Origin: Cristatella mucedo
Taxonomy: Eukaryota; Bryozoa; Phylactolaemata; Cristatellidae
Reading direction: 5' to 3'
Assembly: GCA_009760855.2 (NCBI GenBank)
Contig: WPIO01000031.1
Span: 205,001 to 269,000 of the forward strand
DNA: 64,000 bases
Shown: in pieces, positions 1,585-37,611 of the stretch
Numbering within the stretch: the first letter of the stretch is position 1
Layout: each line of letters begins with the position of its first letter
Translations under genes and position numbers: made by a program
The notes under the pieces: model-generated
The model's input: only the letters and a program-made list of their open reading frames with translations
The model's database searches: none
What the model was told of the DNA's origin: nothing

Positions 1585-2372
1585 GAAGTAGAGTAGCAGT
1601 AGACGCTAGAAGTAGAAGTAGAAGGAGTAGACGAAGGTAGTAGAACTAGGAGTAGACGCTAGAAGTAGAAGTAGAAGGAGTAGACGAAGGTAGTAGAACT
1701 AGGAGTAGACGAAGCAGTAGACGCTGGTAGTAGAAGTAGAAGGAGTAGACGAAGCAGTAGACGCTGGTAGTAGAAGTAGGAGTAGACGAAGCAGTAGACG
1801 CTGGTAGTAGAAGTAGAAGGAGCAGACGAAGCAGTAGACGAAGGTAGTAGAAGTAGGAGTAGACGAAGCAGTAGACGAAGGTAGTAGAAGTAGAAGGAGT
1901 AGACGAAGCAGTAGACGAAGGTAGTAGAAGTAGAAGGAGTAGACGAAGCAGTAGACGCTGGTAGTAGAAGTAGAAGTAGGAGTAGACGAAGCAGTAGACA
2001 TTGGTAGTAGAAGTAGAAGTAGGAGTAGACGAGGCAGTAGACGCTGGTAGCAGAAGTAGAAGTAGGAGTAGACGAAGCAGTAGATGCTGCTTGTAGAAGT
2101 AGAAGGAGTAGACAAAGCAGTAGACGCTGGTAGTAGAAGTAGAAGGAGTAGACGAAGCAGTAGACACAGATAGTAGAAGTAGGAGTAGACGAAGCAGTTG
2201 ACGCTGGTAGTAGAAGTAGGATTAGACGAAGCAGTAGACGCTGGTAGTAGAAGTAGGAGTAGACGAAGCAGTAGACGCTGGTAGTAGAAGTAGAAGGAGT
2301 AGACGAAGCAGTAGACGCTGGTAGTAGAAGTAGAAGTATAAGTAGGAGTAGACGAAGCAGTAGACGCTGGCG
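1585..2372. repeat. Minisatellite with units of about 37-43 bp
   Basis: About 20 imperfect copies of a purine-rich unit (tagtagaagtagaaggagta, then gacgaagcagtagacgctg). Neighbouring acgctg marks sit 40 bp (1721 to 1761) and 37 bp (1761 to 1798) apart, so units differ by whole TAG/AGA triplets. All measured periods equal 1 modulo 3, so the minus strand stays open in all three frames (about 170-280 codons, Ser/Leu/Tyr-rich). These overlapping open frames are a by-product of the repeat and I do not call a gene. Confidence 0.95.
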
Positions 2373-5918: not shown

Positions 5919-7382
5919 AATGCTGCACTGCAACTTCGCTCGGTACTTTGCCGCGACAGGAGCGAAATGGAGCCACACCACGTGACTCGCTGCGTTCCAA
6001 TTCATGCTGCTACACATATATGCAATTCATTTTTATAGCGGTAGGCGGCGGACCGCTCCATTCCAGCCTGCGGCTTGGCGACAGTCTAACAATTCTACGC
6101 ACGGCGCCGCCAGCAAGATGCGAACACAAGACTTCACAGAGCCGAATATCTGGCACTAGCAGGTAAACAGCCATCCGGATGTGACCCATTGAGGGCCAAT
6201 TGGCAAGCTATCGCTGCTGACATTTGTGCTTCCCTTATCATTCAAAGACAAGTTTCTCACACATTTTGACTTTCTTTAACACGTTTCCACAATCCCATCA
6301 GTGACGATTATAAAACTGGTATTAATACATTTAATCTAGCGCCCGCAGAGAACTCAATATCTTTCTAGGCACTTTACTTTTGCTGGAAAGGAAGCACGAT
6401 CGAATGGTTAGTGGTAGCATGCTCAATAAATAACAAGAGTAATATGGTTAGGGGTGACAAGTACAGGGTCAGCATGCAAGTATTGTAAGTGGCAGAATGC
6501 ACAGTGTCAGCAGGCATAAGCACGAAAAGTCGAATCACACGGACCTACTAAACGTTTTGATGAGTCCTTAGTTTCTTTTTAAATGTGATCAAGTCAGGAG
6601 ATGTCGCAACACAAGTCGAAAGTAAGTTCCAGGCTTTGGGACCATACGAACTAAAGGCACAGTCTCCAATGGATTCGAGCTGTGTATTCTATTGCGTATC
6701 ACTTTGCAGCAAATGTAAAGCGCCTAGAAAGAGATTAAGTTCTCTGAGGGCGCTTTATCAAGTGCAATATTATTATTATTATTATTACGAGGTATAGGTA
6801 AACGGTTGGATTCCGAAAAGTGGGTGTTATGATGCTTAGCCTGTTGGGGGAGTAGATTTAATAGGTAGACTGGAGCCAAAAAATGAAGGAACCTAAAAGT
6901 GAGCGACAAATCCTTAAAGTTGATCTGTTGCTTGACTGGTAGCCAGTGAAGGTTGGCAAGAAGTGGTGAGATGTGGCCACTGTGATGCTCACGACCAACA
7001 ATCCTAGCTGCAGAGTTGTGCACCAGCCTTAAGCGCCCGATTTCACAGGCCGGTAGACCAGCAAGCAGTAAGTTCCAGAAGTCGAGATGGCATGTCACAA
7101 ATGCATGGGCCAATTTAGATGTGGTATCCCTGTCTAAACAAGCCCGAATGTTAGCAATGTTATGTAGCTGAAAGAGGGCAGACTTGACTGTGGAGCTGAT
7201 GTTGTCGTCTAATGAAAGGTCACTTTGGAACATGACACCTAGATTTCGTGTAGATTCAACAAAAGATATGCTGGCAGAGCCGATTTTGAGTGTTCGCCTT
7301 TTCAATTTTGGAATCACACTTGGTTCTATCCATTTCTAGTAAGATGGCTATATCATAATTCAATTTCAGAAAGTTTTCTGCA

Positions 7383-31479: not shown

Positions 31480-32372
31480 GCATTGAATGTAGACATCGAA
31501 AGGCAAGAGAGAAGGAAGGGACATTCTAGGTGTCATTTTCCAAAGCGACCTCTCGTTGGACGACCACATCAGCTCCACGGTCAAAGCTGCCTATTTTTAG
31601 CTTCATAATATTGCTAAAATTCGGGCTTGTTTAGATAAGGATACCACGTCCAAGTTGGTCCGTGCATTCGTGACATCTCGTCTCGACTTCTGCAACTCAC
31701 TGCTCACTGGCCTACCGGCATGTGCGATCAGGCGATTGCAGCTGGTGCAAAACTCTGCAGCTAGGCTTGTCTGTCGTGAGCGTCGCAGTTGCCACATTAC
31801 TCCACTTTTCGCCGACCTGCACTGGCTACCAGTCAAGCAAAGGACTGACTTCAAAGTTTTGTCGCTCACTTTTAGGTCCCTTCATTCTATGGCTCCAGCC
31901 TATCCCTCCGACATACTCCCCCATCAGGCCAAGCATCGTACCACCCGCTTTTCGGAATCCAACAGTCTACAAATACCTCGTACAAGCCTCAAATCCTTTG
32001 GAGACCATGCATTTAGTTCGTATGCTCCCAAAGCTTGGAACTCCCTCCCAACCTGCGTCAGAACATCCCCTGACCTGACCACATTTAAAAGGAACTTTTA
32101 AACACACCTATTTAGGACAGCATTTAGTGGGTCCCTGTGATTCGTCCTTCACGTGCTTATGCGTGCTGACACTGTGCATGCTGCCACTAACCACATTTGC
32201 ATGCTGACCCTGTGCATGTCACCCCTAACCATGTTATTCATTTTGTTTGTTTTTCAAGCATGATTTTACTTACCATTTAATTGCATCTCCCTTTGCAGCA
32301 AATGTAAAGCGCCTAGAAAGAGATTAAGTTCTCTGAGGGCGCTTTATCAAGTACATTATTATTATTAAGAGA
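31480..32372 (+). mobile_element. LINE family 1, intact ORF2 C-terminus and 3' end
   Basis: A 148-codon open stretch (31655-32101) reads VRAFVTSRLDFCNSLLTGLP, VQNSAARLVCRERRSCHITP, LHWLPVKQRTDFKVLSLTFR, and [20 protein letters not shown] to a stop. An approximately 200-base 3' UTR and the tail block with ATT repeats follow. It is the best preserved copy of this part and 5'-truncated as usual for LINEs. Confidence 0.92.
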
Positions 32373-32654
32373 GAGGAAAGAGAAAGAAAACAGGAAGATA
32401 TGAGAGTGCTGAGAGATGAGAGCAACAAGAAAAAAGAGGCGAATTGGGAACGAGAGTTTTCTAGATTGGTGCGTTTCTGAGCTTGTTCATGGCGGTCTTG
32501 CCAGCGTCGTACTCAATTCGAGTTTCATTTTGAGTCTCGTAATAGTAAAGGCCTGCATTGATGATGCGAATGTGGTGCATTAACTCATCATCGACCCCTC
32601 CCCAGCTAAAAGGCATTTAATTCGAGCATCAGCTCTGCCAACAACATTTTAGAC

Positions 32655-32839
32655 CAGCGGTTCTCAACCTGTGGGTAGCGACCCCTTTAGTGGTCGAACG
32701 ACCTTTCACAGGGGTCGCCTAAGACCATCAGAAAACACGCATTTCCACATTTTGCACGCAATAGTTTTATGGTTGGGGTCGCCACAACATGAGGAACTGT
32801 ATTAAAGGGTCGCGGCATTAGGAAGGTTGTGAACCACTG
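32655..32839. mobile_element. SPIN-like non-autonomous hAT element with 8-bp target duplication
   Basis: The ends are inverted: cagcggttctcaacct at the left, and cagtggttcacaacct as the reverse complement of the right. The element is 185 bases with no coding capacity. It is flanked on both sides by the same eight bases, TTTTAGAC (32647-32654 and 32840-32847), the target duplication size of hAT elements. The interior (gggtcgcctaagaccatc, atgaggaactgtattaaagg, gtcgcggcattaggaaggtt) matches from memory the SPIN/URR-type hAT MITEs of tetrapods, which are known to have spread horizontally and also to occur in some invertebrates. The boundary evidence is direct; the family name is recollection. Confidence 0.9.
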
Positions 32840-33719
32840 TTTTAGACTGTCTCCCGATATCGCCGACTCCGTGCAAAAAATCATCAGCACGGTATACTTG
32901 CCACATAATAAACTAGTCAGGAATAAACTGCACAGAGAAAGAGAATAGCGCCAGTCCAGGTATTCGTAGCTGCAGCAGCAGAGGCTGAATAATAAAACCT
33001 CTTTCAAATGCTTGCGTGCTCATCAGAGATCTTTTGCCCTCGAGCAGCTCTTCTGCTTTTGTCCACGTTATCAGCGTGGCGGGCTGAGTTCCTATAAGCA
33101 CTAACCCGGGGAGTCAAACAGCTGCAGTGCAGTACTTCGTTACCGCCTACTTAAGGTGCAGGAAATATTGCCGCCTAACGGCTTCCGACATCCGCATATT
33201 ACCAACCGCCGACCGGTCGGCCTCCAGTGCGCCATGCCCAGTAGCGAAAACTCCTCGGCTGCAGAAGCAGGCATTACTTGCGACAGTTTACGAAGTAAGA
33301 CGGCCGCTCGGGGGGGGGGGGATTTTGCAAAGATACGCGAATCATTCGTTAATCCCACCCTTATTTTAGAGCTTTTTCTGCCCTCTCCAATACAACTTAT
33401 AGCATTCAAAAGGCTAGCTCCCGCGCCACTCATTTTAAAGGCAACACTAGATCAAGAAAACTTGACAAACTCCCGCCCACTCTCCGCACTGTCTTTCCAA
33501 TCAAGGTCACTGGAACGATCAGCGGTAGACCATTTTGACCCTGCAATTAAAACCTCAAGCCTAGAAAGTAAGTTTGTCAGACTTTAGAGCTAATCTCTAC
33601 GAATAGTTGGCACGTTGCCGGTGTGGTAAAGACTTTCTCAATGGACGCTGGCTTAGCTAGTCTCTCGACTAGTTCTTCTGGACATCGGCTTTACGTTCGT
33701 TCGATGCTACTGATCACCA

Positions 33720-34829: not shown

Positions 34830-35725
34830 AAGGCTGATGCTCACAATCAGCTCTGTCATGCATATCTCTTGTTAAATCTGCACAAAATCTAGGTGTCGTG
34901 TTCCAAAGTGACCATGCATTGAACGACCACACCAGATCCACACTAAAGTCTGCCTACTTTCAGCTGCATAACACTGCTAAAATTCGGGCTTGCTTAGATA
35001 GGGATACCACATCTAAGTTGGTCCATGCATTTGTGGCATCCCGTCTTGACTTCTTTAGCTCACTGCTTGCTGGTCTACCGGCCTGTGCAATTAGGCGCTT
35101 ACAGCTGGTGCAAAACCCTGCAGCTAGGATTGTCGGTCGTGAGCGTCGCAGTTGCCACATCTCACCACTACGTGCCAACCTTCACTGGCTACCATTCAAG
35201 AAACGGATCAACTTCAAGGATTCGTCGCTCACTTTTAGGTCCCTTCATTTTTCGGCTCCAGCCTACCTATCAGATCTACTCTCACACCAGGCTAAGAATC
35301 TTGCTACCTGCTTTTCGGAATTTAACTGTTTACCTATACCTCGTACAAACCTCAAAATATTTTGGAGACCGTGCCTTTAGTTCGTAGGCTCCCAAAGCCT
35401 GGAACTCACTTCCGTCACGACATCCCCCTGACTTGATCACATTAAAAAAGAAATTAAAAATTCACACTTTCACGCATTTAGTGGGTCCCTGTGATTCGTC
35501 CTTTATGTGCTTATGCGTGCTGACACTGTGCGTGCTCCCACTAACCACACTTGCATGCTGACCCTGTGCATGTCACCCCTAACCAGGTTGTGTTGTTTAT
35601 CAAGCATGATACCACTCTCCATTTCATCGTGTTTTCTTTGCAGCAAATACAAAGCGCCTCGAAAGAGATTGAGTTACCTGAGGGCGCTGTATCAAGTTAA
35701 TCACTATTATTATCAATTACGGACG
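34830..35725 (+). mobile_element. LINE family 1, ORF2 C-terminus and 3' end
   Basis: A 160-codon open stretch (34898-35380) has VFQSDHALNDHTRSTLKSAY (starting one residue upstream), LVHAFVASRLDFFSSLLAGL and LHWLPFKKRINFKDSSLTFR. The frame is then lost shortly before the WNSLP box. It ends with the standard tail near 35715. Confidence 0.9.
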
Positions 35726-36861: not shown

Positions 36862-37611
36862 GAATTGCCTATTTCATTCGTGCACAGGACGACACTATTT
36901 CATGGTGACATTGTTGGGCTACATGCCCGGGTTGTTGCTGACGCATTTTTTACGACCTGTAGTTATACAAGTTCTACCGACCGATCCCTAAGAGCTCCGA
37001 GTCACACAGCTGCATCGGTTATCTGAATCGCTCATAACCTTCTCCCTCACGGCCTACTATTTGCAATGCCGAAGGCCCATATACGCGTTAAGCTTCGGCT
37101 GCTGTTGCTTTGGCAGCGGTTCTTAATCAGCAACAAGCAAGGATGCAGACACGGTTAAGCAAGATAGAACGACACACGAAGGCCTAATCACCCGAAACAA
37201 GCTAGCATAAAAACCATTACACGGCCTTACAGTGTGACCGTCACGAACCACTTTTGACGAAGACGAAGCTCAGCTGCTGACCGTAGGCTAGGCGACCGAA
37301 TGGCAGACCCGCAGAACCAACAGGCAGCAATATGACCAACATCCGAAAGCAGGTGAGCCAGACTTTCCACAACAAAATTCAAACCAAGTACTCAGAAGTA
37401 AACTATTCCACGGGGTTGGGGCCGAATGAAAACGCTTGGTCCGAAACGTCAGTATTTTGTACTATTGGACCAACAGAAATGTATCGCCATTAAGCCACAC
37501 GAATGATATGCACAATAGCCGAAAAGAACGGCTTCAGTTTGCTTAGCCATAGTCTTATATAGACCAAAAGTACCTGACGATAAGCAAGCCCACAATGTTA
37601 TAGGTAACTAG

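What the first reader, a model, noticed from the sequence alone, without database searches (positions are those of the whole stretch)
32655..32839. SPIN-like hAT MITE with intact 8-bp target duplication, a likely horizontally transferred element
The duplication TTTTAGAC and the inverted ends are visible. The interior matches from memory the SPIN-type MITEs famous for spreading among tetrapods, a blood-feeding bug and a pond snail. A well kept copy in another invertebrate would extend the transfer network. At 185 bases it is shorter than the usual roughly 220-base form, with the centre missing.
Basis: partly seen in the sequence, partly recalled or inferred. Interest (0 to 1): 0.85.

Follow-up and report, generated by a model that had tools for sequence, protein, structure and literature searches.

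The report
SPIN jumping gene in an invertebrate
The flagged 185-base stretch is one of well over a thousand copies of what looks like SPIN, a short jumping-DNA family known from mammals, reptiles, a blood-feeding bug and a snail, here in the nuclear genome of an unnamed invertebrate, which adds one more distant host to a known case of DNA spreading between species.

Summary
Window 32655-32839 is a 185-bp element with 16-bp inverted ends and a perfect 8-bp target duplication (TTTTAGAC). It belongs to a resident family: a right-end 23-mer occurs 1,512 times with up to 3 mismatches in the 572-Mb genome, 0 times for the reversed control. The decisive test used the mammalian SPIN centre, typed from recall and absent from the window copy: all 40 scored candidates matched (best 92 %, E 4e-32), and those read in full lie in ~310-330-bp elements with the same ends. 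A recalled OC1 end gave nothing. The window element is thus the common internally deleted form of a SPIN family, not a single damaged copy. The host is not a vertebrate: its mitochondrial contig, tied to the nuclear assembly by a nuclear copy, uses AGA/AGG as sense codons. Spread, independent decay, target duplications and unique flanks speak against contamination. No autonomous SPIN was found. Horizontal transfer is the best explanation. SPIN in protostomes is already published (Rhodnius, Biomphalaria), so this is probably a new host record, species unnamed. The vertebrate reference is recalled, not fetched.

The parts
32647..32654 (.). left copy of the 8-bp target site duplication TTTTAGAC
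32655..32839 (+). non-autonomous SPIN-type hAT element (MITE), 185 bp; 7 substitutions and two 1-base deletions from the 187-bp host consensus; no coding capacity proposed
32655..32670 (+). left terminal inverted repeat CAGCGGTTCTCAACCT
32655..32746 (+). left part shared with the 321-bp long-form consensus (94.6 % over 93 columns)
32747..32759 (+). 13 bp at the internal-deletion junction, in place of about 147 bp of the long form
32760..32839 (+). right part shared with the long-form consensus (96.3 % over 81 columns)
32824..32839 (-). right terminal inverted repeat (CAGTGGTTCACAACCT on the minus strand)
32840..32847 (.). right copy of the 8-bp target site duplication TTTTAGAC

Best explanation
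The stretch is an old, non-coding, internally deleted copy of the SPIN (SPACE INVADERS) hAT family. Shown: terminal inverted repeats, 8-bp target duplications mostly of the type nnnTAnnn, about 1,500 or more right ends in the genome, a rarer form of about 321 bp that holds the recalled SPIN centre, and a commoner 187-bp form without it. Inferred: a SPIN transposase made elsewhere bound the ends, cut the element out and pasted it at TTTTAGAC with an 8-bp stagger; the 187-bp form arose from the long form by one internal deletion of about 147 bp with about 13 bp of filler, as in interrupted gap repair, its left breakpoint inside a 17-bp palindrome; it then amplified as a MITE and the family decayed. 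Inferred: the family entered this protostome lineage by horizontal transfer, with direction, donor and route unknown. It most likely does nothing for the host now.
For: Ends and duplication. 40 of 40 scored copies at 90-100 % (window copy the 100 %), from 2,263 first-look candidates. 23-mer: 217 exact and 1,512 within 3 mismatches, 0 controls. Recalled 98-nt SPIN query, about 57 nt of centre plus 41 nt shared with the short form: 40 of 40 scored candidates (766 first-look) match, every one starting at query base 1-7 and so covering the centre, best 92 %, E 4e-32; 0 of 46 12-mers of that centre are in the window element. A 29-mer wholly inside the centre: 55 places within 3 mismatches, 5 of them exact, 0 controls. 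Same ends around it. Long-form consensus from 9 copies aligns to the recalled 225-nt mammalian SPIN sequence with two base differences and one 3-base indel outside a 99-base block that the recalled form lacks. A recalled 92-nt OC1 end found nothing. Target duplications of 6 or more of 8 in 22 of 28 and 9 of 13 copies, with TA at positions 4-5 in both flanks in 15 of 22 and 6 of 9. 17-bp palindrome in the long form. Non-vertebrate mitochondrial code and nuclear copy.
Against: The vertebrate SPIN reference is recalled, not fetched. The ends were recalled after I had read the window copy, so only the centre is an independent test. The OC1 control is weak: the tool notes that an empty answer without a known positive shows nothing. 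No autonomous SPIN was found: of 69 scored hits of a recalled TcBuster transposase none could be shown to have SPIN ends, but only 8 were read, some on one side only. Not every copy has a duplication (6 of 28 and 4 of 13 do not), and 7 of 16 candidate long copies lacked an alignable end. Without orthologues in relatives, transfer is inferred from near identity of non-coding DNA. No empty site was found, because the flanks are single copy. Host species unknown.
Confidence: 0.88

Rival explanations
1. An unrelated hAT MITE that only shares the widespread hAT-type terminus CAGNGGTTCTCAACC with SPIN.
For: Similar termini occur in many hAT families (recalled). Two other hAT families in this genome have related but different ends, CAGGGGTGTCCAA and CAGGGGTCGGCAACC, read by eye.
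Against: The likeness runs through about 165 bp of both ends and through the centre, which was predicted from recall and then found; a recalled end of another hAT family found nothing.
Confidence: 0.05
2. Contamination: vertebrate DNA in the assembly, or a chimeric contig.
For: SPIN is best known from tetrapods; no read data were available.
Against: The 100 listed exact 23-mer places, of 217, fall on 47 different contigs (my count), one of them 24.8 Mb long; copies carry independent mutations and their own target duplications; the window flanks are single copy and meet around the insertion. The assembly is tied to a non-vertebrate mitochondrion by a nuclear copy on the 5.6-Mb contig C166, which itself carries SPIN copies.
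Confidence: 0.02
3. Old vertical inheritance: SPIN was present in the common ancestor of this host and vertebrates.
For: hAT elements are ancient, and SPIN-like copies are reported from more than one invertebrate.
Against: Copies sit about 5-10 % from their consensus (8.7 % implied by the ratio of exact to 3-mismatch hits under a binomial model), while the consensus is nearly identical to the recalled mammalian one in non-coding DNA; inheritance since the bilaterian ancestor would not leave that.
Confidence: 0.03
4. The host is one of the invertebrates already known to carry SPIN, so the record is not new.
For: Host identity could not be established. SPIN is reported in Rhodnius prolixus and Biomphalaria glabrata, and from recall in Lymnaea stagnalis and a planarian.
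Against: The 21-kb, 44.5 % G+C mitochondrial contig with an ND1-ND6-CYTB-ND4L-ND4-ND5 block on one strand (genes other than COX1 named by eye) does not fit my recall of insect, pulmonate-snail or flatworm gene orders.
Confidence: 0.15

Closest known systems
SPIN (SPACE INVADERS) non-autonomous hAT elements of tetrapods (SPIN_NA forms; rodent URR1) [sequence recalled]
   Same: Both ends (about 85 + 80 bp), terminal inverted repeats, 8-bp target duplication, and the centre in the long form
   Different: The commoner host form is 187 bp with its own internal deletion; the long form is 321 bp, with a 99-base block that the recalled 225-nt form lacks, two base differences and a 3-base indel
SPIN in Rhodnius prolixus (PMC11614815, passages)
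   Same: SPIN in a protostome, attributed there to horizontal transfer
   Different: Rhodnius is an insect; this host's mitochondrial arrangement is not the insect one (recalled). Sequences could not be compared
SPIN-like hAT of Biomphalaria glabrata, about 1,000 copies, no intact transposases detected in that assembly (PMC5440852, passages)
   Same: Copy number of the same order in a protostome; no autonomous copy found here either
SPIN of the painted turtle, 385 elements, filed there as hAT-Charlie (PMC4054807, passage)
   Same: Same named family; non-autonomous hAT
   Different: Vertebrate host. The hAT-Charlie filing differs from my Buster-type label, which is recalled; the two schemes were not reconciled
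Other hAT families in the same genome: TcBuster-like with ends CAGGGGTGTCCAA, and an Ac-like family with near-identical copies
   Same: hAT superfamily; cross-mobilisation conceivable
   Different: Different terminal sequences; no SPIN ends in the loci fetched

Membership tests
SPIN (hAT) | Terminal inverted repeats of the type CAGYGGTTCTCAACC | tested here: met
   consensus termini CAGCGGTTCTCAACCT / CAGTGGTTCTCAACCT
SPIN (hAT) | 8-bp target site duplication | tested here: met
   Window copy perfect; 22 of 28 and 9 of 13 copies with 6 or more of 8 matching, control 889 of 20,000
SPIN (hAT) | Subterminal sequence near-identical to the tetrapod SPIN consensus | tested here: inconclusive
   One base differs over about 85 + 80 aligned end positions, but against a recalled sequence, recalled after reading the window
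SPIN (hAT) | Presence of the SPIN centre in longer members | tested here: met
   query recalled, centre absent from the window copy; weak negative control
SPIN (hAT) | Multi-copy, non-autonomous family | tested here: met
SPIN (hAT) | Autonomous partner with SPIN ends and a hAT transposase | tested here: inconclusive
   None found; flanks of most transposase hits were not read
SPIN (hAT) | Direct alignment to Repbase/Dfam SPIN entries | not testable with these tools
   No eukaryote repeat library held; viral, GTDB, phage, plasmid and E. coli collections gave no match
Buster-type hAT (target nnnTAnnn, recalled) | TA at positions 4-5 of the 8-bp target | tested here: met
   Both flanks TA in 15 of 22 and 6 of 9 copies with a duplication of 6 or more of 8; window copy TTTTAGAC fits. 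The class label rests on recall

The most novel reading that the evidence does not exclude
SPIN entered a protostome group for which my searches showed no SPIN record (searches showed only a bug and a snail), with an ancestral sequence about 99 % identical in non-coding DNA to the recalled mammalian one, which makes this lineage or its associates a possible link, or a reservoir, in the SPIN transfer network. The group itself is not identified.
Probability: 0.5. Interest if true: 0.62.

Novelty: new member of a known kind. Interest (0 to 1): 0.5.

Why it matters
SPIN is a textbook case of a DNA transposon that crossed between animal phyla, and its carriers are unknown. A protostome with on the order of 1,500 copies and both a 321-bp form and a 187-bp derivative gives a sequence-level data point for that network once the species is named. 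The consensus sequences described here can be compared directly with those of Rhodnius, snails and tetrapods to order the transfers.

Tried and rejected
Looked for SPIN DNA in held collections: phages, plasmids, E. coli, viral contigs and GTDB contigs with two exact patterns: no match, so no vertebrate SPIN could be fetched second-hand. Paper-text searches for SPIN sequence words found nothing. Three main SPIN papers are not held, nor is the hAT phylogeny paper by the two ids I tried.

Autonomous partner. (a) The abundant hAT transposase family (30 of 138 matches fetched; main alignments to L034 at 99.0-99.9 %, L032 at 98.3 %) has no SPIN match in the 1.5 kb fetched on each side and ends differently: rejected. 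(b) The family of L078-L080 and L116 (weak DUF4371, about 30-32 % to recalled TcBuster) ends in CAGGGGTGTCCAA: rejected. (c) C144:960960-962441 first looked right, because 72 bp of SPIN left end lie just downstream; reading it showed in-frame stops, a different 3' terminus (GGTTGCCGACCCCTG) directly before the SPIN piece, and no SPIN right end upstream above control (score 35, control maximum 37): rejected as an insertion in or beside a SPIN copy. (d) L115, L117, L118, L119, L121, L122, L124: no SPIN ends.

The second terminus-like site at 37114 (2 mismatches) has no partner or SPIN interior by eye, and the long-form consensus finds only the one copy in the window. Ten window ORFs gave no Pfam match. 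Species identification from assembly size failed, the 18S search did not complete, and the neighbour-LINE copy search did not complete. A first codon count had one of four genes out of frame; it was redone and only the latter is used.

Full report
What is there. Window 32655-32839 is a 185-bp element with 16-bp imperfect inverted ends and perfect 8-bp direct repeats TTTTAGAC on both sides. The window is contig C244, bases 205001-269000, of a 572-Mb, 688-contig assembly. A search with the two flanks joined across the element hit only this place; each flank matched at 100 % and the two matches overlap by exactly the 8 bases of the duplication. The insertion sits in DNA that is single copy by that search; no empty relative of the site was found.

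A resident family. A DNA search scored 40 copies, the window copy included, out of 2,263 first-look candidates, at 90-100 % identity and mostly 186-188 bp. A 23-base word from the right end occurs 217 times exactly and 1,512 times with up to 3 mismatches; the same word read backwards occurs 0 times. The ratio implies about 8.7 % divergence per base and about 1,740 right ends under a simple binomial model. Aligning 28 best copies gave a 187-bp consensus; the window copy differs from it by 7 substitutions and two single-base deletions. Divergence from consensus is 5.1 % in those 28, which were chosen for likeness to the window copy, and 10.2 % in 13 of 20 copies picked by hand as roughly every fifth of the 100 places listed; the other 7 were dropped because both ends did not align to the 187-bp consensus. 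Both samples are biased, the second by the exact 23-mer. I give no age, because no host rate is known; a passage of PMC3621081 places transfers of such elements at about 45 to 15 million years ago.

Target sites. With one base of slack, duplications with 6 or more of 8 matching bases were found in 22 of 28 and 9 of 13 copies, against 889 of 20,000 random placements. Where found, TA stood at positions 4-5 of both flanks in 15 of 22 and 6 of 9. The pattern nnnTAnnn is, from recall, that of Buster-type hAT elements; a passage of PMC4054807 files SPIN under hAT-Charlie, and I did not reconcile the two labels.

Is it SPIN? No eukaryote repeat library is held, and viral, GTDB, phage, plasmid and E. 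coli collections gave nothing. The mammalian SPIN sequence is therefore recalled. Because the ends might be recalled under the influence of the window, I tested the part the window lacks. A 98-nt query, about 57 nt of recalled centre plus 41 nt shared with the short form, matched in 40 of 40 scored candidates (766 first-look); every match begins within the first 7 query bases, so it covers the centre; best 92 %, E 4e-32. None of the 46 12-mers of that centre occurs in the window element. A 29-mer wholly inside the centre occurs in 55 places within 3 mismatches, 5 exact, reversed control 0. The best two hits lie in elements measured as 327 and 332 bp with the same ends. As a control a recalled 92-nt end of OC1, another transferred hAT, gave no match; the tool warns that an empty answer alone shows nothing. 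A 321-bp long-form consensus from 9 copies (16 examined, 7 dropped for a missing or unalignable end) aligns to the recalled 225-nt sequence with a C/T and a G/A difference, a 3-base indel, and one 99-base block that the recalled form lacks. Two of the nine copies are far from this consensus (22 and 29 %), the other seven 7.5-11.5 %.

Two forms. The centre 29-mer occurs in 55 places against 1,512 places for the right-end 23-mer, so the form without the centre is much the commoner, though the two words are not equally long. The two consensus sequences agree over the left 93 and right 81 bases; between them the short form has 13 bp where the long form has 147 bp. The long form carries a perfect 17-bp inverted repeat with a 7-base loop at positions 65-105, and the left deletion breakpoint of the short form lies inside it. 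I infer one internal deletion during repair, followed by amplification.

The host. Contig C688 (21,008 bp, 44.5 % G+C) is mitochondrial: COX1 by Pfam, other genes named by eye from their translations. In four open frames (COX1, CYTB, ND4, ND5) AGA occurs 48 times, AGG 37, TGA 49, TAA and TAG 0; AGR would be stops in the vertebrate mitochondrial code (recalled). A nuclear copy on the 5.6-Mb contig C166 is 96-97 % identical over 2,268 and 1,505 bp, so the mitochondrion belongs to this assembly. The block ND1-ND6-CYTB-ND4L-ND4-ND5 on one strand suggests a lophotrochozoan, from recalled gene orders; I cannot name the phylum or species. With PMC11614815 (passages) and PMC5440852 (passages) reporting SPIN in a bug and a snail, this is a further protostome host, probably a new one.

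Transfer and contamination. The 100 listed places of 217 lie on 47 contigs (my count); copies decay independently and have their own target duplications. This speaks strongly against contamination. Near identity of the non-coding consensus to the recalled mammalian one, with copies only 5-10 % from their own consensus, is not compatible with inheritance since the bilaterian ancestor. Direction, donor and route cannot be read from one genome.

The missing motor. No autonomous SPIN was found. The recalled TcBuster transposase scored 69 places of 890 candidates. Eight of these places were read in whole or part, some on one side only: C645, C77, C99:5315000, C321:2302316, C55, C144:960960, C676:12372109 and C331:1792051. 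They gave other termini, no SPIN ends, or, at C144, a piece of SPIN beside a different broken hAT element. An extinct or unfound autonomous copy would fit the decayed copies; this is inference.

What it works like, and membership. It works like any hAT MITE. It meets the SPIN features that could be tested (ends, duplication, centre, copy number), with the reference recalled; the transposase test is open.

Noticed in passing
G000, e.g. L034, L043, L048, L050: An abundant Ac-like (by eye) hAT family with near-identical copies (main alignments mostly 99.0-99.9 %) and many places listed with open frames near 640 aa, i.e. very recent activity in this genome; right end ...AAATCCGGTACAGCCCTA.
   Followed up: partly
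L078, L079, L080, L116: A TcBuster-like hAT family, about 2.7 kb, ends CAGGGGTGTCCAA, 93.6-95.2 % between these copies, one copy with an open frame of 563 aa.
   Followed up: partly
G000 contig C688 (L063-L065): Unusual 21-kb mitochondrial contig: a perfect 2,119-bp tandem duplication and a 1,795-bp inverted copy; ND2 and COX2 (by eye) and the large rRNA on the other strand; assembly artefact not excluded.
   Followed up: partly
window 31601-32101 (+), 34838-35380 (+), 6724-7335 (-): Fragments that read like the C-terminal part of an L2/CR1-type LINE (by eye; no Pfam match).
   Followed up: no
window 1587-2354: A 768-bp minisatellite of a 40/77-bp unit, open in several frames without evidence of coding.
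   Followed up: no
L099: A SPIN copy of about 298 bp with a foreign insertion containing an AAT-type microsatellite in its left part.
   Followed up: no
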